Positions 1 to 27,102 of a stretch of 64,000 bases of DNA are shown here, piece after piece. The stretch is from Deltaproteobacteria bacterium (GTDB lineage: Bacteria; Desulfobacterota; Desulfuromonadia; Desulfuromonadales; BM103). The DNA lies in the NCBI GenBank assembly GCA_024636215.1, contig JAGXHL010000098.1:1-64000 (forward strand), given 5' to 3'. Position numbers and translations under genes: made by a program. The number at the start of each line of letters is the position of its first letter. Position 1 is the first letter of the stretch. A model generated the notes under the pieces. That model did no database searches and had not been told where the DNA came from. It saw nothing but the letters and a program-made list of their open reading frames with translations.

Positions 1-49
1 GCCCTCAGCCCTCAGCCCTCAGCCCTCAGCCCTCAGCCCTCAGCCCCCA
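1..49. repeat. Heptamer tandem array (GCCCTCA)n
   Basis: Six perfect copies of GCCCTCA fill positions 1-42 and one degenerate copy (GCCCCCA) follows. The metH stop codon lies inside the array, so the last residues of that protein are repeat-encoded. This looks like one arm of the bipartite 7/8-mer elements found at other gene boundaries here; the other arm would lie before the window start. Confidence 0.9.
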
Positions 50-2441
50 GCAACCGCTTCCCCTTGGCAACGGCTTCGAGAGCGTCCTTGGCGTAGATGT
101 CCGCACCGATGCTATCTGCATAATCCTGGCTGACGACGGCACCGCCCACCATGGTAAACACCTTGATCCCAGCTTCCCTGAGCTTTTTTAGGGTCACATC
201 CATCTGCTGCAGGGTTGTCGTCATTAATGCCGAGAGGCCAACGGCGTCGACCGCTTCCTTTTGTGCCACTTCGAGGATTCTTGAGGCAGACACATTCTTA
301 CCCAGGTCGATCACCTCGAAACCATGGTTCTCCAGCAGGGTACAAACGATATTCTTACCGATGTCATGAATATCACCTTCAACCGTAGCCATCAGAATTC
401 GTCCCAGCGAGGGGCCGCTCTCGCCGGCAAAATTCTCTTTCAGGTAGCTGAATGCGGTCTGCATGGTTTCTGCGGAGCGCATGACCTGAGGGAGGAAAAT
501 GCGATTGTCGGCAAAGCGGCGCCCTACCTCTTCGAGGCCCGGCAGCAAACCCTCATTACTGACTGCCATAGCATCCAGGCCGTCCTGCATGGCATCCTTG
601 ATCAGGCCAACAATGCCTTCGCTGTCGCCGGCAACGATGGCCGCGGCAAGGCGTTGACGTACATCCGCTGGCGCTCCCGGTTGCACTGCAGCTGGGCTGT
701 CCGCTATGGCCCGGGCGGCGTAGTGGGCAATATAGGCCTCGGCCCGCACATCCTGGCAAAGCAGAACCAGCGCCGAGCGGTAGGCATCCATCATGCGTTC
801 ATCTTTGGGGTTGATGATGGCCACCTTCAGGCCAGCCTCCAGCGCCATGGCAAAAAAGACGGCAGAGAGAACCGGCCGAGAGGGCAGACCGAAGGAGATA
901 TTGCTGACGCCAAGGGTCGTAGCCAGGCCCAGCTCGTCACGGACCTGACGCAAGGCGCGCAAGGTTTCAAGCGCGCGCTTTTGCTCCGCCGACACGGTCA
1001 GGGTCAGGCAATCGATCACCAGGTCCTGCTTCGGCAAACCAAGCGAGAGTGCGGCCTCAAGAATCCGGCCGGCGATGGCAACACGGCCCTCCGCGGTTTC
1101 TGGGATGCCTGTTTCATCAAGGGTCAGGCCGATGACTGCGGCGCCATAACGCCGGGCAAGAGGCAGAACCCTGGCCAGACTTTTCGCTTCACCATTGACC
1201 GAATTGATCAGGACTTTGCCATCTGCGGCCTTCAGTCCACGCTCCAGCGCCTCAACATCCGACGTATCGAGCACCAGGGGTGCGCTGCAGACGCCGGTCA
1301 CGGCATAAATGGCTCGCTCCAGTGCGGCGGCTTCATCAACGCCGGGAGCGCCACAGTTGACATCGAGCAAATGGGCGCCGGCAGCAACCTGTTCGGCGGC
1401 TTCACGGCGGATATAAGCTGTCTTGCCGGCAAGCAGTTCTGCGGTAAAAGCTTTCTTGCCGGTGGGGTTAATGCGTTCGCCGATCAGGGCGCAGGCCGCA
1501 TCGCCACCAAACTCCGCGACGGCACTCCGGCTGGAAAGCAGACCCCGCCTGGCCGGCGGCGTCCACTCCTGCGGATAGTTTTGCAGAGCGGTCCGCATCG
1601 CCCTGATGTGGTCGGGTGTGGTCCCGCAGCAGCCGCCGAGCACCCTGACACCCAGGGCGATCAGGCGCTCATGATAGGCGGTCATTTCCTCGGGCGTGCC
1701 CGGAAAGAGGGTCTGGCCTTCCTTAAGGATCGGCAGGCCGGCGTTGGCCTGGGCTATCAGGGGCCTGTTGGTGACCTGACGCATCCGGGCAAGGACATCA
1801 TAGATGCCGTCAATACCGAGTCCGCAGTTGGAGCCGATCAGATCGACCTGAAGAGCGTCAAGGGTGACAGCGGCAGCCTCAGGCGGTGTACCCAGGACGG
1901 TGCGGCCGGCATCATCGAACGTCATCTGTGCGATAATCGGCAAATCACAGACGTCGCGGCAGGCGATGATGGCAGCCCGCAGTTCGCGGATATCGAGAAA
2001 CGTTTCGAAGCAGATCAGGTCGGCACCGCCACCGGCCAGGGCCGTGATCTGTTCGGCAAAGATATCGACCATCTCATCAAAACCGGCATCGCCGACCGGC
2101 TCGACAAAGCGGCCGGTGGGGCCGACTGAGCCGCCGACAAAGAGCTGGTCACCAGCTGCCCTGCGAGCCAGTTCGACCGCAGCACGATTCAATTCATCAA
2201 CAGCCGATTCCAGTCCATAGTGGCCGAGCTTGGCGCGGTTACCGCCAAAACTGTTGGCCACCAGGATATCGGCACCGGCTGCTGCATACTCGGAGTGGAT
2301 TCCGACCACGGCATCCGGCGCGACCCGGTTCATCTCTTCAGGGCAGCCTCCAGGTGGCAAGCCGCGCTCCTGCAGGAGGGTCCCCATGGCACCATCGAGG
2401 ATCAGAACCCCTTCGCTGATCGCTTTTCTAAAATCTCTCAT
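33..2441 (-). CDS. metH: Short cobalamin-dependent methionine synthase (homocysteine S-methyltransferase, no reactivation domain)
   Basis: Transfers a methyl group from methyl-tetrahydrofolate through cobalamin to homocysteine. The 802 residues hold an N-terminal homocysteine-binding barrel with the zinc cysteines C206, C271 and C272 (GGCCGTTPDH), a pterin-binding barrel (about 315-580), a helical cap (about 595-675) and a Rossmann cobalamin domain with DIHDIG at 690-695, H692 being the expected lower ligand. The protein stops after the B12 domain, so the C-terminal AdoMet-dependent reactivation domain of the ~1200-residue E. coli enzyme is missing; how the cofactor is re-reduced cannot be told from this window. 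The start overlaps the stop of the upstream GerMN gene by ATGA, implying translational coupling. Confidence 0.93.
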   Translation of the reverse strand: MRDFRKAISEGVLILDGAMGTLLQERGLPPGGCPEEMNRVAPDAVVGIHSEYAAAGADILVANSFGGNRAKLGHYGLESAVDELNRAAVELARRAAGDQLFVGGSVGPTGRFVEPVGDAGFDEMVDIFAEQITALAGGGADLICFETFLDIRELRAAIIACRDVCDLPIIAQMTFDDAGRTVLGTPPEAAAVTLDALQVDLIGSNCGLGIDGIYDVLARMRQVTNRPLIAQANAGLPILKEGQTLFPGTPEEMTAYHERLIALGVRVLGGCCGTTPDHIRAMRTALQNYPQEWTPPARRGLLSSRSAVAEFGGDAACALIGERINPTGKKAFTAELLAGKTAYIRREAAEQVAAGAHLLDVNCGAPGVDEAAALERAIYAVTGVCSAPLVLDTSDVEALERGLKAADGKVLINSVNGEAKSLARVLPLARRYGAAVIGLTLDETGIPETAEGRVAIAGRILEAALSLGLPKQDLVIDCLTLTVSAEQKRALETLRALRQVRDELGLATTLGVSNISFGLPSRPVLSAVFFAMALEAGLKVAIINPKDERMMDAYRSALVLLCQDVRAEAYIAHYAARAIADSPAAVQPGAPADVRQRLAAAIVAGDSEGIVGLIKDAMQDGLDAMAVSNEGLLPGLEEVGRRFADNRIFLPQVMRSAETMQTAFSYLKENFAGESGPSLGRILMATVEGDIHDIGKNIVCTLLENHGFEVIDLGKNVSASRILEVAQKEAVDAVGLSALMTTTLQQMDVTLKKLREAGIKVFTMVGGAVVSQDYADSIGADIYAKDALEAVAKGKRLLGAEG

Positions 2442-6633: not shown

Positions 6634-8622
6634 CTAAGCCGCCTGGCCTTCATGCACATGCGGACAGGCGAAGTGTTCGCCCGATATGTACCCATGCTCT
6701 GGGCAGATGGTAAAGGTCGGGCTGAGTGTGAAATAAGGCAGATGGAAATTCTCAGCAATCCGCTTCACCATGAGACGGGCACTCTGCCAGTCTTCCAATC
6801 GTTCTCCAAGGAAGCCATGGAATACGGTGCCGCCGGTATACAGAGTCTGTAATGAGTCCTGATGCGTAAGCGCCTGGAAGATATCATCCGTTGTTCCAAC
6901 CGGGAGCTGGGTTGAATTGGTGTAGTAAGGCTCTGACTCTCCGGCAGTAATGATCGCCGGGTAGCGCATGCGGTCGGCGCGGGCCAGACGGAAGCTGGTT
7001 CCTTCAGCGGGTGTCGCTTCAAGATTATAGAGGTGGCCGGTTTCTTCCTGAAACACCTCCAACTGGCGGCGCATGAACTGCAGAGTGCGCACCGAGAGGC
7101 TCTTGCCTTCCGTGGTCTCGATGCCTTTGCCGATCAGGTTGAGCATTGCTTCGTTCATGCCGAGCAGGCCAATGGTGGAGAAGTGGTTATCCCAGTACCG
7201 ACCACTGCGCTCGCGGATGCCCTGCAGATAGAAGCGGCTGTAGGGATAGAGGCCCTCCTCGGTCAGACGTTCCAACTGCTTGCGCTTGATCTCGAAAGAT
7301 TCATAAGCGATGCGCATCAGCTCGGAGATCCTGGCAAAAAAGCCATCCACGTCTTCCGCCTGGTAGGCCGCCCGGGGAAGATTCAGAGTGACCACTCCGA
7401 TCGATCCGGTCAGGGGGTTGGAGCCGAACAGACCGCCGCCCCGTCGCCGCAGTTCACGGTTATCGAGGCGCAGCCGGCAACACATGGAACGGGCATCTTC
7501 GGGGTCCATATCGGAATTGATGAAGTTGCTGAAATAAGGAATGCCGTACTTGGCGGTCATTTCCCAGATCGGCTTGAAGCGCGGGCTGTCCCAGTCCAGT
7601 TCGCTGGTGATATTAACCGTCGGAATCGGGAAGGAGAAGATGCGACCGGACGCATCACCCTCCATCATCACCTCGCAGAAGGCCCGGTTGAAGAGATCCA
7701 TCTCTTCCTGAAAGTCGCCATAAGTGGTCGCCATCAACTGACCACCGATAATAACAGCCTCCTTGCCGACATCACGCGGAGGAACAAGATCCAGAGTAAT
7801 GTTGGTAAAAGGTGTCTGAAAACCGACGCGCGTCGGCACGTTCATGTTAAAGATGAATTCCTGCATCGACTGGCGGACCTCTTTATAAGAGAGCCCGTCA
7901 TAACGGATAAAGGGTGCGAGCAAGGTATCGAAATTGGCAAAGGCCTGGGCCCCGGCAGCTTCGCCCTGCAGGGTGTAAAAGAAATTGACGATCTGGCCGA
8001 GAGCCGTGCGGAAATGCCTGGGCGGCGCACTTTGAACCTTGCCGTAGGCGCCACTGAAGCCCTTGAGGAGCAGGTCCTTTAGATCCCAGCCACAGCAATA
8101 GACCGAGAGCATGCCCAGATCATGGATATGGAAATCGCCGTCGCGATGAGCATCGGCCACATAGTGCGGGTAAATCTTGTTCAGCCAGTAGTTGCTGGTC
8201 ACGTTGGAGGCAATATGGTTGTTCAGGCCCTGCAAGGAGTAACCCATATTGGCGTTCTCGTTGACCCGCCAGTCCTCCTGGGTGAGGTAGGAATCCATCG
8301 ATTCGATCGATTCCTTGATAATCGCCTTGGTTTCGCGCAGGGAAGCGTGCTGCTGACGATAGAGGATATAGGCCTTGGCGGTCTTGGCGTGACCGTTTTC
8401 GATGAGAATTTTTTCGACCAGGTCCTGGACGTTTTCAACGGTCGGAATGCGTCCATCTTTATAGATGACTTCAAGGATACCGACGACCTGGCGGCCGAGG
8501 CCGGAGACCTGCTCCATATTCGAGCCACCAACGGCCTTGACCGTTTTTTGAATGGCAGAGATAATATTTTGTTCTTCAAACGCTACAAGCCGACCATCCC
8601 GCTTACGAATAAACTCCAGCAC
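6634..8622 (-). CDS. nrdD: Anaerobic ribonucleoside-triphosphate reductase, large part without the glycyl-radical loop
   Basis: Reduces NTPs to dNTPs under anoxia. The GTG start at 8622 is preferred because GGGGAGG lies 5 nt upstream; the product is 662 residues. An N-terminal ATP-cone (VLEFIRKRDGRLVAFEE, about 1-90) gives allosteric control, followed by the catalytic barrel (phrases HDLGM, MNVPTRVGFQTPFTN, FSFPIPTVNI, SMCCRLRLDNREL). Near the end, C640-x2-H643 and C653 form part of the C-terminal metal site, but the frame ends at CPHVHEGQAA, where homologues continue into the radical loop. The loop is encoded by the next gene (6441-6581). Two NrdR-box-like sites lie upstream at 8710-8757. 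Confidence 0.92.
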   Translation of the reverse strand: MLEFIRKRDGRLVAFEEQNIISAIQKTVKAVGGSNMEQVSGLGRQVVGILEVIYKDGRIPTVENVQDLVEKILIENGHAKTAKAYILYRQQHASLRETKAIIKESIESMDSYLTQEDWRVNENANMGYSLQGLNNHIASNVTSNYWLNKIYPHYVADAHRDGDFHIHDLGMLSVYCCGWDLKDLLLKGFSGAYGKVQSAPPRHFRTALGQIVNFFYTLQGEAAGAQAFANFDTLLAPFIRYDGLSYKEVRQSMQEFIFNMNVPTRVGFQTPFTNITLDLVPPRDVGKEAVIIGGQLMATTYGDFQEEMDLFNRAFCEVMMEGDASGRIFSFPIPTVNITSELDWDSPRFKPIWEMTAKYGIPYFSNFINSDMDPEDARSMCCRLRLDNRELRRRGGGLFGSNPLTGSIGVVTLNLPRAAYQAEDVDGFFARISELMRIAYESFEIKRKQLERLTEEGLYPYSRFYLQGIRERSGRYWDNHFSTIGLLGMNEAMLNLIGKGIETTEGKSLSVRTLQFMRRQLEVFQEETGHLYNLEATPAEGTSFRLARADRMRYPAIITAGESEPYYTNSTQLPVGTTDDIFQALTHQDSLQTLYTGGTVFHGFLGERLEDWQSARLMVKRIAENFHLPYFTLSPTFTICPEHGYISGEHFACPHVHEGQAA

Positions 8623-8709
8623 GGCAACCTCCCCCAGACAAAAGCAAACACTTCCAGCATCCAAGCTGCTAGCAAGTTAACACAGAGTCAGAAAATGGCA
8701 AGGGGAAAA

Positions 8710-9458: not shown

Positions 9459-10691
9459 TCACATCTCGTGACAGGACGCACAATCTTCAGCCACACCAAA
9501 AGCGGTCTCACCATCGTGGCAGGCACCACAAGACTCGCCGTTCTCCATCTCCTCCATGGTCGCCTGGTTGGCCCCGCGTTTGGCCTGGAAAAGATCCGGG
9601 TGACACTCATCACAACCGAACATGTCGGTATGTGCCGCATGCGGGAAAATGATATGGCCGGCGTCTTCGTTAACGTATGAGATATCTCCAGCATGACAGG
9701 AGGCGCAATCGTCTTTGACGCCAAAGGCCGTATCGCCATCATGACAGGCACCACAGGACTCTCCGGCTGCCATCCTCTGCATGCCGACCTGGTTGCTATT
9801 AGCCTTCGCCTTGAAGGTATCGGGATGACATTCGCCGCAACCGAACATTTGGTTGTGGATATCATGACTGAAAGAGACGCCGCCAACATGTTCAGTCTGC
9901 ATGACCTGCTCCCCGGCATTGCTGTGACAGGTTGTACAATCACCCGCAACACCGAAAGCACTCTCGCCATCATGACAGGCACCACAGGACTCACCCTCTT
10001 CCATCTTCTTCATACCAACCTGGTTGCTGTTGGCCTTCGCTCTGAAGATGTCGGGGTGGCATTCGTCGCAGCCGAACATTCCGGTATGCACATCATGACT
10101 GAAGAGGATCTCGCCAACGGTGCTTCTGATCGTAATCTCCTCAGCCCCCTGGTGGCAACTTCCGCAGTCACCGGCGACGCCAAAGGCCGTATCACCATCA
10201 TGACAGGCACCGCAGGATTCTCCCGCTTCCATTTTTTCCATACCGACATGGTTGGCATTACGCTCAGCAACAAAGACATCCGGGTGGCATTCATCACAGC
10301 CAAACATTTCCGAGTGAAGGTCGTGGCTGAAAACAACTTTTTCTGCTTCGCCGTAGTTTATTTCTACATCACCGGCATGGCAGGTGGTACAGTCGCCACC
10401 GACATCAAAGGCCTTCTTGCCATTATGGCAGAGGCCGCAGGATTTGCCGCCTTCCATGTCCGTCATGGTAAAGGTGGGGTTCTTCCTGGCCACAACATGA
10501 AAGGGTTCGTTGTGACAGGTCGGACAGTTTTTGCCTATGGAGTCTTCTTCCATATGCGAGAAGTGGCTGAACTCCACCTTGCCTACGCTATCAGTTTGCA
10601 GGTAGACTTTGTCTTTGATCCATCGGCCGTATAGAAGGGATGGCAGAGCCACCAGGACAAGAATTGCAAGAATCACCCAACGTCGTTTCAT
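9459..10691 (-). CDS. 15-heme c7-type multiheme cytochrome of five triheme modules
   Basis: A 410-residue protein with one N-terminal membrane/signal helix (about 5-22) and fifteen CxxCH motifs. They fall into five tandem modules of about 75 residues, each with three hemes. Modules 2-5 share the plan FSHDxHxxMFGC-x2-CHPDxF, then GESCGACHDGxxAFGV, then C-x2-CH. The module matches the c7-type triheme repeats of the Geobacter 'nanowire' cytochromes GSU1996 and GSU0592, which have four modules and 12 hemes; this one has a fifth. It is probably a periplasmic or membrane-tethered electron conduit. A GGAGGAAG ribosome site precedes the ATG, and nothing suggests it is co-transcribed with other genes. 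Confidence 0.93.
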   Translation of the reverse strand: MKRRWVILAILVLVALPSLLYGRWIKDKVYLQTDSVGKVEFSHFSHMEEDSIGKNCPTCHNEPFHVVARKNPTFTMTDMEGGKSCGLCHNGKKAFDVGGDCTTCHAGDVEINYGEAEKVVFSHDLHSEMFGCDECHPDVFVAERNANHVGMEKMEAGESCGACHDGDTAFGVAGDCGSCHQGAEEITIRSTVGEILFSHDVHTGMFGCDECHPDIFRAKANSNQVGMKKMEEGESCGACHDGESAFGVAGDCTTCHSNAGEQVMQTEHVGGVSFSHDIHNQMFGCGECHPDTFKAKANSNQVGMQRMAAGESCGACHDGDTAFGVKDDCASCHAGDISYVNEDAGHIIFPHAAHTDMFGCDECHPDLFQAKRGANQATMEEMENGESCGACHDGETAFGVAEDCASCHEM

Positions 10692-22848: not shown

Positions 22849-22890
22849 TCTCAGGCCCGTTCATTCTCAGACCCGTTCATTCTCAGGCCC
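22849..22890. repeat. 16-bp tandem repeat (TCTCAGGCCCGTTCAT)
   Basis: Two copies (22849-22864 and 22865-22880, one mismatch) and a partial third between the convergent stop codons of rmuC and the receiver-kinase. The kinase TGA stop lies in the third copy. Confidence 0.85.
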
Positions 22891-23992
22891 ATGGCAGAGT
22901 AAACCAGAAAGTCGTCCCTCTGCCCTCACCTGCGGATTCCAGCCAGATCTGGCCATCATGACGTTCTATGATGCGTTTGACCAGGGCGAGCCCGACGCCT
23001 GAGCCCTGGTTGTCTTTGCTCTGTCGCCAGAAAAGATCAAAAACTCTGGCCTGAGCCTCGGCCTCAACCCCCTTGCCATTGTCCCGGACATAACAGGCGA
23101 GCCCCCGCGCCGAATCTGCAGAGCCGCATTCGATGCGGGGCTCCGGTTGTGATCCCAGGTACTTTACAGCATTCTCAAAGAGGTTCTGCATCATTTGGCT
23201 CAATCGCTCGTGGTCACCATAAACCTCTGGAAACCTCTCGGCGATCTGCCAATCAATCCGACGCTCGCTTTTCAGGCCTGAGATCGCCGCTCGTGCATCT
23301 TTAACAACGGCCTTTAAATTGACTCGCTCTGATGCATAGGAGACGTTGCCCACCTGGTTAAATTTGAGCAGGTCCGTCAAAAGCGTGTTCATTTTACGCG
23401 CGGCGGAACGAATCTGGGACAGGTTTTCAAGCACTCCGTCCTGCGCAGAGTCACCGAGTTCCTGTTCAAGAATTTCAACAAAACCGCTGATCGTGAGTAA
23501 TGGACTTTTGAGATCGTGGGCGACCGAGTAGGCAAACCTTTCCAGTTCTTCGTTTTTGGCCCTGAGCAATTCCCGGGCGGCACGAATTCGCAGGAACGCT
23601 TCAATCCTGGCAACAAAATCAATCCGGGTAATCGGCCTGACGATGTATGCGTCAGCGAGCCCCGCGCGCAAGCCCTCTGCCTGGTGCTCCGGCAGGATAC
23701 GCTTTCCGGAGAGCAACACGACAAAGACATCGTCGAGCTCAGACTCTGACTTGATCCTCTTCGCGATCTCGATACCATCGCCATCGGGAAGTTCGACATC
23801 CAGCAGAGCCATTGCCGGTCGTAGCGCGCGAACCATCGTTTCCGCCTCTTTTGCTGTAGACCCCGAGACAACCTGATAACCGGCATTCTCAAGGATGCGA
23901 CCGGTCGTGAAGAGAACATCCGGATCATCATCGATCATCAGAATGGTTTTGTCGCGTGGCGAGACAGAGGTTGTCAACTTGTGCGCACTCAT
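22883..23992 (-). CDS. Receiver-histidine kinase hybrid (REC first)
   Basis: A 369-residue cytoplasmic signal protein: an N-terminal receiver with the acidic pocket D21-D22-D23 and phospho-acceptor D65 (LLDVELPDGDG), then HisKA with H159 (AYSVAHDLKSPLL) and HATPase_c (NLFENAVKYL, DNGKGV, GVGLALVKRI). The receiver lysine usually in KP reads VRP (R119), a departure from consensus. The kinase has no sensor domain of its own, so it is probably driven by phosphotransfer onto its receiver. Last gene of a four-gene minus-strand operon, overlapping the heme-oxygenase-like gene by ATGA. Confidence 0.92.
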   Translation of the reverse strand: MSAHKLTTSVSPRDKTILMIDDDPDVLFTTGRILENAGYQVVSGSTAKEAETMVRALRPAMALLDVELPDGDGIEIAKRIKSESELDDVFVVLLSGKRILPEHQAEGLRAGLADAYIVRPITRIDFVARIEAFLRIRAARELLRAKNEELERFAYSVAHDLKSPLLTISGFVEILEQELGDSAQDGVLENLSQIRSAARKMNTLLTDLLKFNQVGNVSYASERVNLKAVVKDARAAISGLKSERRIDWQIAERFPEVYGDHERLSQMMQNLFENAVKYLGSQPEPRIECGSADSARGLACYVRDNGKGVEAEAQARVFDLFWRQSKDNQGSGVGLALVKRIIERHDGQIWLESAGEGRGTTFWFTLPWA

Positions 23993-25272
23993 GAAAGGTC
24001 TTCCTCCGTTTGCCGGACAATGGCCCTGTAGGTCGCAAAAACCTCTTTCGTCTGCTCAGGGAAATCCGAATTGCCGCATCCCCTTGCGCTCAGCCAGGCT
24101 TCAATTCCTGCCGCGGCCTCCGCAAAGCCCGACCGTTCATCTATCAGAGCAGCAACGATAAGGACACCAATATTTGCAAATCCACCTTGCTCCGAGCCGA
24201 GCCGCTCTTCAATCTGCGCGGAGAGTTCAGTGAACTGCGTTTCCGAACAGATCGCCAGACGCTTGTCACGCAAGGCAGCAACGCCGGCATTTAATTTTTG
24301 ATACGCGGGCCGACGAGTCGGTAAACGACTGACCAGCTCTTCGACCAAGATCACGAGCTGCCTTTCCAACAGATATTTCGGCATCCCCAGACGCGCCAGG
24401 AGATCGGCAAGCCACATTACCTGCTGGGCAACGCCATCAGCTTCAAGGTCGCACAAAGTCACCAGCCAGGCGACATCACTGCTGGTGAACCTGCGCCCCC
24501 GATCGCCGTAGCGAAGGTCGAAATAGGGGAACTCCTGCCGACAGCGTTGTCCTGCGACCAAGGCGACACGGATCTCTTCGGGGTCTTTTGGAATCGGATG
24601 GTTGCCGGCTTCCGGGTTAAGAGAAGTCACTTTCAGACGGCGCTCTGCGGCTGGAGGCAGCGGGTAGAGCGCCGCGTGAACCTTCACCAATCGCTCGAAA
24701 TGGCCCCGGGCGACTTCCAGAATCTGCTGTCGCTCTCCGACTTCGAGCGGGACGTTATCCATCAGGGTCACAACTGTCTGCCAGACTTCGTCGGTGTGCG
24801 TTTCAAAGGCGCGATAAAAGGCGTCTCCACCCGGCTTGTCACCGAGGATTTTGCGGACATCGGCAAGATGGACCCGATTTCCCATGATCGTGCCGCCGAG
24901 GGTATAAATATGTCCGAGCAGCAGCCTCGGGTTATCGACCCCTGCTTCTCGAATTGTCTGCGCAATCTCGAGACTGGTATCAACAGCGCTATCAATATCG
25001 GCAAACAGCTCTGCAGAGAACAGGTCCAGGTCATCGAGAAGATGGCGGAATCTGCCGTTGAAAGCCCTTTGGACATCCTTGACTGCAACATCGTCGACGG
25101 AATCCATGGTTCGCTCCAGGGTGCTGAACAGGATGGCAAAACAGCGCAACTGGTTGACGTAGCTGTCCAACGGCAGAGTGCCGTCAGCAAGAGCAGCAAA
25201 GAACGCTTGCTGCTCCAGCTCACGGTGTAAATCGAGCGTGGCATCTCTGAGTTGCTGACTGAGTCTTGACAT
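23989..25272 (-). CDS. Heme-oxygenase-like domain fused to an unknown helical domain
   Basis: A 427-residue protein. Residues ~1-200 resemble bacterial biliverdin-producing heme oxygenase: LRDATLDLHRELEQ places H16 as the proximal heme ligand, and HIYTLGGTIMGNRV (121-134) fits the glycine-rich distal helix. Residues ~230-427 are a mostly helical region I do not recognise (FPYFDLRYGDRGRRFTSSD; then WLADLLARLGMPKYLLERQL). Either a true oxygenase or a heme-binding sensor is possible; enzymatic turnover needs oxygen, which is odd for an anaerobe. The start at 25272 is chosen for the GGAGC site upstream. The gene sits between two histidine kinases and overlaps the second by 4 bp. Confidence 0.75.
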   Translation of the reverse strand: MSRLSQQLRDATLDLHRELEQQAFFAALADGTLPLDSYVNQLRCFAILFSTLERTMDSVDDVAVKDVQRAFNGRFRHLLDDLDLFSAELFADIDSAVDTSLEIAQTIREAGVDNPRLLLGHIYTLGGTIMGNRVHLADVRKILGDKPGGDAFYRAFETHTDEVWQTVVTLMDNVPLEVGERQQILEVARGHFERLVKVHAALYPLPPAAERRLKVTSLNPEAGNHPIPKDPEEIRVALVAGQRCRQEFPYFDLRYGDRGRRFTSSDVAWLVTLCDLEADGVAQQVMWLADLLARLGMPKYLLERQLVILVEELVSRLPTRRPAYQKLNAGVAALRDKRLAICSETQFTELSAQIEERLGSEQGGFANIGVLIVAALIDERSGFAEAAAGIEAWLSARGCGNSDFPEQTKEVFATYRAIVRQTEEDLS

Positions 25273-25291
25273 TGTCGCTAGCTCCATTTCC

Positions 25292-26452
25292 CTATTTTGT
25301 GTGTGACGGAAGCGCTTTTCTTGCCATGGAAAGACAATCAGCAGGCAGGTTAAAGCTGAAACAGGAGCCTTGACCCGGCTCACTCTCGACATGAACAGTG
25401 CCGCCGTGGGCTTCGACGATTTTGCGCACGATCACCAACCCCAGGCCGATGCTCCGCTCGCCGCTGGACTTAACCTTATCTCCACCCCGAAAAGCCTTGA
25501 ACAGCCTTAACCTCTGCTCATCGCTCAGACCGGCCCCCTGATCCGTTATCCGGCAGGTCACCCCTTGCTCGAGCCGATCGCAAACTATTTCGACACGGCC
25601 TTGTTCCGGGGAGTGTTCGATCGCATTGCTGACCAGGTTCGTGAAGACCTGCTCCAGTTTCTTTCTGTCAACCCTCAACATCGGTAAAGCAGGATCAATC
25701 GCCACCTGCAGCTGAACATTGCGCTTTTTGGCCGCAGCTTCCACCAGCATCAGCGCTTCGGAAACCAGTGTTTGCAAATCAGAAGCTTCGATATCGAGGT
25801 TGAACCGTCCGGCTTCGATCATGGTCACATCGAGGAAATCGTCGATCAGGCCGGTCATTGCTGATGCCGAAGCCAGCATCCGCCTCAGCATCATTTCCGC
25901 TGTGGAACCGGGGGCGAACTTGGCCTCTTCAAGCAGTAACTCGCCGTAATTCAGAATCAAACCGGCAGGCTTGCGAAGATCGTGGGAGGCCATACCGAGA
26001 AACTGGTTTTTTAGCTTGTTCAACTCGTCCAATTCCACGTTTGTTTGAGCCAGCTCCCGCCCCATGGCAGTCAGTTCATGATTGAGTTCAAGGACTTCCC
26101 GATGCAATCGCTTCTGCTCCTCCGGGTCGACCTGGCCAAACAGAAGCCGCGTATCATCGCAGCATTCAGTTGTAATATAGAGCGTTTGCGGCAAGCCATC
26201 GGCGACCCGGATGTTCATCAAGCGAGGTTCGCTGGAAGGTTCAAGCCAGGGGAGTGGGCTGTCAGGAGAAGAGAAAACCAGCATCGATGCAAGGGGAGTT
26301 CCCTTAAGAGGCAGGCCGGTCAAGCGGGTCGCAAAGCTGTTGGCAAACAACACGGTACCATCAAGGGCCACCTGCAACAGCACCACATGTGACTTTTGAC
26401 AAAGGTAATCCCAGGCAAGGCTCTTCAAGGTTGTGGCATCGTGACCATTCAT
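25292..26452 (-). CDS. PAS-type sensor histidine kinase
   Basis: A 386-residue soluble kinase: a divergent PAS-like domain (about 15-110), a coiled coil (about 112-150, ELNHELTAMGRELAQTN), HisKA with H157 (FLGMASHDLRKPAGL) and HATPase_c with NLVSNAIEHS, DQGAGL and GLGLVIVRKI. No membrane segments. The start overlaps the stop of the cobalamin-domain gene by ATGA, and the heme-oxygenase-like gene begins 19 bp after its stop. No stand-alone response regulator accompanies it; the downstream REC-kinase is the natural phosphotransfer partner. Confidence 0.9.
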   Translation of the reverse strand: MNGHDATTLKSLAWDYLCQKSHVVLLQVALDGTVLFANSFATRLTGLPLKGTPLASMLVFSSPDSPLPWLEPSSEPRLMNIRVADGLPQTLYITTECCDDTRLLFGQVDPEEQKRLHREVLELNHELTAMGRELAQTNVELDELNKLKNQFLGMASHDLRKPAGLILNYGELLLEEAKFAPGSTAEMMLRRMLASASAMTGLIDDFLDVTMIEAGRFNLDIEASDLQTLVSEALMLVEAAAKKRNVQLQVAIDPALPMLRVDRKKLEQVFTNLVSNAIEHSPEQGRVEIVCDRLEQGVTCRITDQGAGLSDEQRLRLFKAFRGGDKVKSSGERSIGLGLVIVRKIVEAHGGTVHVESEPGQGSCFSFNLPADCLSMARKALPSHTK

Positions 26453-27102
26453 TGTTTAATCAGAACCTGTTCCAGGGTATCAAGACTCGACGATAGGACA
26501 ACGTTGGAGTGTTTTCGGCCGACTTGTGTCCCTCCCCAGCACTCCCGAAACGCCTGGCCACCAACTACAAGCGGAATCCCGGGAAAGGTCGAGACAACCG
26601 CATCAAGGGATCTCTCCAGCGACGGCATGTTGAAATAGACGCTCAGCGACAGGCCAACCAGATCCGGTCGACGCTGATCGATCATCTCGAGCAGACTGTT
26701 CAGAGGAGTGTTGGCACCGAGGAAGTAGCTGCGCCAGCCATGGATCTCTGCCAGGTCGGCGACCATTCTTGCTCCAAGCTGGTGATATTCGTCTGCGATA
26801 CAGGAAACGATCAGGGTTCGGTCACGCACAGCACCGCTAAAAAGGTCGGGCTGCACAAGGGTCATAACGCGCTGGGTAATCGCTGTGGCGAGATGTTCGA
26901 CGGCCACCGAGATATGCTGATGCTCCCACAATTCGCCGACTTCGTAAAGAGAGCGCTGGAAAAGGTTGATATAAAGATCCTTCAGCCCGGCATCGGTCAA
27001 CTGGAGCTCTTTGACGATACCGGCACACTGGACGCGATCACCTTGCAACAGCGCACTGAGGTAACGGGAATAGAGGCTTTCTTCAATCACGCTCGTGATC
27101 AT
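26449..27102 (-). CDS. Stand-alone CarH-type cobalamin-binding domain protein
   Basis: A 217-residue protein with the two-part B12 module: a four-helix cap (about 1-85) and a Rossmann domain (about 90-215). The cap carries W59-x9-E69-H70 (LWEHQHISVAVEH), the W-x9-EH signature of adenosylcobalamin photoreceptors such as CarH. The Rossmann domain carries E105-x-H107-x2-G110 (DEYHQLG), in which His would be the lower cobalt ligand. There is no MerR DNA-binding domain, so output must pass through partners. First gene of the operon, coupled to the PAS kinase. The ATG at 27102 is preferred for its AGGGGAAG site over an upstream ATG at 27144. Confidence 0.85.
   Translation of the reverse strand: MITSVIEESLYSRYLSALLQGDRVQCAGIVKELQLTDAGLKDLYINLFQRSLYEVGELWEHQHISVAVEHLATAITQRVMTLVQPDLFSGAVRDRTLIVSCIADEYHQLGARMVADLAEIHGWRSYFLGANTPLNSLLEMIDQRRPDLVGLSLSVYFNMPSLERSLDAVVSTFPGIPLVVGGQAFRECWGGTQVGRKHSNVVLSSSLDTLEQVLIKQ

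What the first reader, a model, noticed from the sequence alone, without database searches (positions are those of the whole stretch)
22883..27102. Four-gene operon joining a CarH-type cobalamin sensor, a PAS kinase, a heme-oxygenase-like protein and a REC-kinase
All four genes are minus-strand; two junctions overlap by ATGA and the third gap is 19 bp. The first product has the W-x9-EH and E-x-H-x2-G signatures of adenosylcobalamin photoreceptors but no DNA-binding domain. The third has a heme-oxygenase fold with the proximal histidine. Two tetrapyrrole-binding proteins and two kinases therefore form one module: perhaps a light, oxygen or heme/B12-state sensor that signals by phosphorelay. I know of no described system with this composition.
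Basis: partly seen in the sequence, partly recalled or inferred. Interest (0 to 1): 0.82.

Follow-up and report, generated by a model that had tools for sequence, protein, structure and literature searches.

The report
Split light sensor with built-in pigment maker
Four adjacent bacterial genes look like a light-sensing system in which one protein would use vitamin B12 as its light pigment, another would both make and hold a bile pigment, and two signalling kinases would pass the message on; this is inferred from sequences and predicted structures, not shown by experiment.

Summary

Fusions occur in at least seven phyla by MAG label. In 244 genomes of one class all 18 HO genes over cut-off are such fusions; fusion and B12 gene co-occur (16 of 17 against 8 of 227 genomes). 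None of 34 fusion genomes showed a bilin reductase, one a phytochrome. I read this as a split photocobilin: a B12 photosensor paired with its own kinase, plus a globin that makes its own biliverdin, feeding a phosphorelay. HO, globin and B12 clusters (Rockwell 2023) and photocobilins (Zhang 2024) are published, so this is a new variant of a known kind. Chromophore binding, light response, docking and phosphotransfer are inferred. No second locus with exactly these four genes was seen; L026 comes closest.

The parts
26449..27102 (-). B12-binding photosensor-type protein, 217 aa: B12-binding_2 (12-82) + B12-binding (96-186); W59, E69-H70, H107 (expected lower cobalt ligand)
   Evidence: Pfam; closest solved structures photocobilin SasPcob 8j2x/8j2w E 1.1e-22; W-x9-EH in 120 of the 120 best-listed relatives
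25292..26452 (-). Sensor histidine kinase, 386 aa: N-terminal ~115 aa region (weakly PAS-like), HisKA (148-215), HATPase_c (262-371)
   Evidence: Pfam; ATGA overlap with B12 gene; same kinase type directly follows the B12 gene in 8 of 10 loci L093-L102, the best B12 hit in each of the ten best-scoring genomes of the class searched
24658..25266 (-). Heme oxygenase domain (residues ~3-205 of the 427-aa protein 25272-23989); H16 proximal position, G127-T128-x2-G131 distal helix
24250..24591 (-). Bilin-type globin domain (residues ~228-341) fused to the heme oxygenase; D266 and W287 match SasPcob Asp270 and Trp296
23992..24249 (-). C-terminal helical tail (residues 342-427), not assigned to a known fold
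   Evidence: predicted helices; barely covered by the fold matches
22883..23992 (-). Receiver-histidine kinase, 369 aa: Response_reg (17-130), HisKA (150-213), HATPase_c (259-367); ATGA overlap with the HO-globin gene
   Evidence: Pfam; sequence

Best explanation
A light-responsive two-component module of the photocobilin kind, but split over two polypeptides. The HO domain opens heme to biliverdin when oxygen is present and passes it to the globin on the same chain, so this protein loads its own pigment. The B12 protein binds adenosylcobalamin through H107, with the adenosyl group against W59/E69/H70. Green light cleaves the Co-C bond directly. If the biliverdin globin docks on the B12 domain as it does within one chain in SasPcob, red light does so as well. 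The change in the B12 protein switches the co-transcribed sensor kinase, and the receiver-kinase acts as relay or branch point toward response regulators elsewhere. Because biliverdin needs O2 and heme, red sensitivity would appear only under oxygen: a light-and-oxygen coincidence detector. Shown by computation: genes, domains, predicted globin fold and conserved residues, fusion, co-occurrence, scarcity of other known biliverdin users. Inferred: biliverdin synthesis and binding, AdoCbl binding, light response, docking in trans, direction of phosphotransfer.
Confidence: 0.58

Rival explanations
1. The B12 protein and its kinase form a complete green-light sensor on their own; the HO-globin has a separate role (for example a biliverdin store or light shield) and is only co-located.
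For: The B12-kinase pair is the tightest unit: 8 of 10 loci L093-L102 have this kinase directly downstream, and G223 and G315 have the pair without any fusion hit.
Against: Genome co-occurrence holds even where the genes are apart (16 of 17 fusion genomes have the B12 protein); two published systems join B12-binding domain and bilin globin (PMC10979010, PMC10151467).
Confidence: 0.17
2. The HO domain no longer works as an enzyme and senses heme, oxygen, CO or NO, with the globin as a second ligand domain; the module reports redox or tetrapyrrole status, not light.
For: The distal Asp140 position is Thr in 34 of 36; two paralogues, L088 and L089, have lost the proximal His and distal glycines; the window's neighbours look anaerobic.
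Against: The window protein keeps H16, G127 and G131. Separate HO genes beside B12 and globin genes in L055 and L059 lack the Asp as well (G-S-T-L-G and G-A-T-L-G; Pfam HO). The fusion is the only HO over cut-off in its class; a bilin-type globin on the same chain points to a bilin product.
Confidence: 0.14
3. Heme degradation for iron or detoxification, with the globin as product carrier, and the kinases regulating it.
For: HO enzymes are widely used for heme iron (general knowledge); the fusion is in most fusion genomes the only HO found.
Against: None of the 24 window proteins scanned outside the operon was named as heme uptake (not all window genes were scanned); strong association with a photoreceptor-type B12 protein and kinases.
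Confidence: 0.08

Closest known systems
Photocobilins (SasPcob, AbDPcob; PMC10979010, PDB 8J2W/8J2X/8J2Y)
   Same: B12-binding domain with the W-EH and E/DxH motifs plus a bilin-type globin; conserved Asp and Trp of the biliverdin pocket.
   Different: There the globin is fused to the B12 domain in one chain; here it is fused to a heme oxygenase and the B12 domain is a separate protein paired with a histidine kinase. SasPcob His137 is not conserved here.
BBAG-2 / pre-2 clusters and Myxococcales HO, globin and B12-binding associations (PMC10151467)
   Same: The same three activities associated; BBAG-2 globins bind biliverdin; photoglobins belong to that lineage.
   Different: Described there as separate genes; pre-2 clusters also have a bilin reductase, not found in any of 39 genomes tested here; 'histidine kinase' has 0 occurrences in that text and no HO-globin fusion is mentioned in the passages found (its supplement was not seen).
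CarH / AerR cobalamin photoreceptors
   Same: B12-binding fold and AdoCbl light-site residues; AerR is a B12-binding co-regulator (PMC9144470, search listing only), without DNA-binding domain as recalled.
   Different: Glu instead of His132 after the Trp (CarH residue recalled); the adjacent partner is a kinase instead of a repressor.
Bacteriophytochrome operons (BphO-BphP; recalled)
   Same: HO gene placed with a bilin photoreceptor and kinases.
   Different: No phytochrome here; the globin would replace the phytochrome photosensor, and PHY domains were found in 1 of 34 fusion genomes.

Membership tests
Photocobilin | B12-binding domain with W-x9-EH and E/DxH | tested here: met
   W59, E69-H70, E105-x-H107; of the 120 best-listed relatives 120 have W-x9-EH and 119 the second motif; best PDB hit SasPcob
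Photocobilin | Globin-like biliverdin domain with pocket Asp and Trp | tested here: met
Photocobilin | B12 domain and bilin globin in one polypeptide | tested here: not met
   Separate genes 26449-27102 and 23989-25272. So it is not filed as a photocobilin; the claim is that it works like one
Photocobilin | Binds AdoCbl and biliverdin; light-driven spectral change | not testable with these tools
   needs protein
Heme oxygenase (PF01126) | HO fold with proximal His and glycine-rich distal helix | tested here: met
Heme oxygenase (PF01126) | Distal Asp140 (HO-1 numbering) | tested here: not met
   Thr in 34 of 36. That some HO enzymes lack this Asp is recalled, not tested
[quoted passage not shown]
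   association; globin fold; bilin binding itself not testable
BBAG-2 globin lineage | Phylogenetic placement with characterised BBAG-2 proteins (CAP_1521, MBK7865059) | not tested
   their sequences were not obtained; the stand-in globins of L055-L059 are distant (branch 3.15)
CarH | DNA-binding (MerR-type) domain | tested here: not met
   only the two B12-binding domains; NCBIfam CarH 55.8 bits against cut-off 400
Two-component histidine kinases | HisKA and HATPase_c domains | tested here: met
   both kinases above gathering cut-off

The most novel reading that the evidence does not exclude
A self-chromophorylating biliprotein (heme oxygenase and bilin globin in one chain) that docks in trans on a separate B12 photoreceptor, giving a split photocobilin phosphorelay whose red-light channel is switched on only when oxygen lets the cell make its pigment: a light-AND-oxygen detector in mostly anaerobic bacteria.
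Probability: 0.4. Interest if true: 0.78.

Novelty: new variant of a known kind. Interest (0 to 1): 0.62.

Why it matters
If right, it gives a function to a widespread protein that its sources, where they name it at all, call just 'heme oxygenase', and suggests how heterotrophic, largely anaerobic bacteria use bilins. It bears on an open question: the functions of BBAG-type bilin globins are 'not yet known' (PMC10151467, passage), and a globin fused to its pigment-making enzyme, beside a B12 photoreceptor and its kinase, is a directly testable answer. It would also be a two-colour, genetically compact sensor that supplies its own biliverdin, useful for optogenetics, and a separable system for studying optical coupling between biliverdin and B12.

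Tried and rejected
Sequence-only recognition of the globin failed: phmmer of the C-terminal part gave only hemoglobin at E 1.6-2.1; profiles A1 and A3 found no globin in the PDB; the L055 globin alone found nothing credible. The full-length model's fold searches were filled by heme oxygenases, so the C-terminal part was folded alone.

The search for related loci with the single protein found nothing; the alignment found 43 loci.

A bacteriophytochrome operon was considered: PHY domains in 1 of 34 fusion genomes. A phycobilin pathway was considered: bilin reductase in 0 of 39. A tree of the globin domain did not place the window with support and had 16 of 41 inner branches open; it is not used for claims about the origin of the fusion. 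Promoter and terminator scans gave nothing above shuffles.

Limits of the counts. Several loci come from the same MAG (for example L008, L014, L019), MAGs are incomplete, and the 244 genomes were drawn from a larger class that holds genomes I already had, so prevalence is not unbiased; the Fisher test ignores kinship. 'Desulfuromonadia' and 'Polyangia' are my names for the classes of G025 (a Geobacter MAG by title) and G030 (Nannocystis by title); no call named the classes. G348 (short fragment) and G402 (gene with in-frame stops) are counted among the 17 fusion genomes. One of the 34 genomes, G033, is known from a contig-cut copy (L041). In one search a 15th genome, G339, has an HO match below cut-off (21.4 bits) that is no fusion hit. 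In one search one of three HO matches of G016 (C669, 463-aa frame) was not checked for the globin. Of the 53 loci, 43 were fusions, 6 globin-only and 4 partial; only fusions enter the neighbour counts. A1 left out 2 of the 38 homologues (P0011, P0037). A2 took only frames with an N-P/V-EAG motif and at least 170 residues after it, which dropped L020 (later found to keep the Asp and Trp). A3 left out three rows of A2 (L006, which holds N; L019; L023).

Full report
What is there. Four minus-strand genes, 27102 to 22883, are tightly packed: B12-binding protein (217 aa), sensor kinase (386 aa), heme-oxygenase-like protein (427 aa) and receiver-kinase (369 aa). Two junctions are ATGA overlaps and one gap is 19 bp. 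Pfam finds B12-binding_2 and B12-binding in the first, HisKA and HATPase_c in the second, Heme_oxygenase (residues 3-198) in the third, and Response_reg, HisKA and HATPase_c in the fourth. The flanking genes are RmuC downstream on the other strand and a HIGH-nucleotidyltransferase upstream.

Residues. A profile of this domain finds globins in five genomes of the class of G030 (best domain E 3.1e-9) that lie beside separate HO and B12 genes. A probe joining the window's B12 protein and one such globin raised the photocobilin scores over the B12 protein alone (SasPcob 83.7 to 93.6 bits, AbPcob 56.5 to 68.3), while a B12 protein matched only over its B12 part did not gain (8jbs 60.1 to 58.9). In these alignments the L055 Asp and Trp fall on SasPcob Asp270 and Trp296, which contact biliverdin (PMC10979010, read parts 1-3 of 8); the window equivalents are D266 and W287. 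Both are present in 36 of 36 aligned fusions, in 39 of 39 rows of the globin alignment (D51 and W72), and in the 53 loci in 50 of 51 and 49 of 49 that cover the position; the exception, Glu in L042, is in a partial gene. AbPcob, which has His at the Asp270 position, binds biliverdin poorly (same paper). The HO domain keeps H16, G127 and G131 in 36 of 36, with Thr at the Asp140 position in 34 of 36. Among the 53 loci the proximal His is kept in 39 of the 42 that cover it. Two paralogues, L088 and L089, have lost it together with distal glycines but keep the globin Asp and Trp; L035 has Arg in an uncertain start region. In the B12 protein W59, E69-H70 and H107 match SasPcob Trp61, Glu71-His72 and His108. 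The residue after the Trp is Glu in 119 of the 120 best-listed relatives and Asp in one, so the CarH bis-His light form (His132, recalled) is not expected. SasPcob His137 aligns with Ser here, a point against an identical interface.

Who has it. The protein search scored the 7997 candidates sharing most words and gave 38 homologues. The genome-contig scan with alignment A1 gave 43 loci from Thermodesulfobacteriota, Acidobacteriota, Nitrospirota, Pseudomonadota, Lentisphaerota, Hydrogenedentota, Omnitrophica, KSB1 and others, by record title or treekit label; nearly all are MAGs. Of the 43 fusions, 26 have a B12 homologue within 2 kb (one of them, L015, weak and without the motif) and 29 a histidine kinase within 4 kb. 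Of the 28 fusions with at least 2.5 kb on both sides, 18 have a B12 gene, 20 a kinase and 23 either within 2.5 kb; 5 have neither. L026 (Hydrogenedentes) has B12, kinase, HO-globin in the window's order, followed by a receiver-PAS gene that the contig end cuts, so its kinase part is not seen. L035 and L018 have B12, kinase, HO-globin. In the class of G025 (244 genomes; I call it Desulfuromonadia) the fusion profile hits 17 genomes (two of them fragments or broken), the B12 protein hits 24 at E<=1e-30, and 16 have both (Fisher p 2.6e-18, kinship ignored). All 18 heme oxygenase genes over cut-off in those 244 genomes coincide with fusion hits; one further match, in G339, is below cut-off and is no fusion. 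Of 34 fusion genomes one has a PHY domain, and no bilin reductase was found in 39 genomes, these 34 and the five with separate genes. Of the four globin-only genomes searched, G030 and G031 have an HO match elsewhere, while G029 and G032 show none. In 8 of 10 loci, the best B12 hit in each of the ten best-scoring genomes of that class, the window-type kinase lies directly downstream, and G223 and G315 have that pair without a fusion.

How it most likely works. The B12-kinase pair is the core switch. The HO-globin adds a second pigment: heme to biliverdin in the HO domain (O2 needed), capture by the fused globin, and, if it docks on the B12 protein as the globin does within SasPcob, red-light excitation passed to the B12. 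In SasPcob the ternary complex responds to green and red light by Co-C cleavage (PMC10979010). The receiver-kinase would take phosphate from the sensor kinase or feed another regulator; no DNA-binding response regulator lies in the operon. L055-L059, with separate HO, B12 and globin genes divergent from a kinase with two receivers and a receiver-kinase-receiver (Pfam on L055), show the same toolkit in another arrangement. The degenerate HO domains of L088 and L089, in MAGs that also hold intact copies, would fit globins that use biliverdin made by a sister protein; that is inference. Computed: genes, domains, fold, residues, linkage. Inferred: all chemistry, docking in trans and signalling.

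What is known. Rockwell and colleagues (PMC10151467; [quoted passage not shown] The photocobilin paper proves biliverdin-B12 coupling in one chain. A third paper of the photocobilin group was seen in passages only (PMC11796333). In the texts read, none reports an HO-globin fusion or a kinase operon of this kind. Searches of the held library listed no other paper on this combination by title and abstract start; supplements and the photoglobin paper of 2022 (not held; recalled) were not seen, so an earlier notice cannot be excluded.

Verdict. Interest is moderate to high, because the fusion is widespread, unexplained and directly testable.

Noticed in passing
L055-L059 (genomes G149, G155, G169, G145, G152, class of G030): Cluster of separate HO, B12-binding and tandem-globin genes, divergent from a histidine kinase with two receivers and a receiver-kinase-receiver; probably the Myxococcales cluster type of Rockwell 2023.
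   Followed up: partly
L088:6436-7878 and L089:6808-8235 (G011, G023): HO-globin paralogues whose HO domain has lost the proximal His and distal glycines while the globin Asp and Trp are kept; the same MAGs hold copies with the His.
   Followed up: partly
L001:3627-4763, L022:9230-10306, L111:988-2127, L113:868-2121, L114:997-2142: B12-binding proteins with an extra N-terminal region of about 140-210 aa, helical-looking where read (L001, L022), possibly a second globin-like domain; not tested.
   Followed up: no
G402:C78:83155-83580 (L075): HO-globin gene with in-frame TAG and TAA stops, apparently a decayed copy; it is the one fusion genome of 17 without a strong B12 hit.
   Followed up: no
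G011 (Geobacteraceae MAG of L008, L014, L019): Four HO-globin genes plus a fragment, and five B12 homologues at E<=1e-30, in one MAG, hinting at expansion of the system in some Geobacteraceae.
   Followed up: no
window 33-2441 (-): 802-aa methionine-synthase-like protein covering MetH model positions 3-857 of 1182 and scoring below the MetH cut-off (532 against 1010.85 bits), so it appears to lack the C-terminal activation domain.
   Followed up: no
window 6634-8664 (-), 9459-10691 (-): Anaerobic ribonucleotide reductase and a cytochrome c7-type multiheme protein, pointing to an anaerobic, perhaps Desulfuromonadales-like host; odd company for an oxygen-requiring heme oxygenase.
   Followed up: partly
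L038 (Thiocapsa roseopersicina DSM 217): Stand-alone globin of this family beside a divergent B12-binding gene in a cultivated bacterium (a purple sulfur bacterium, recalled), with an HO match elsewhere in the genome (G031:C65); a practical strain for experiments.
   Followed up: partly
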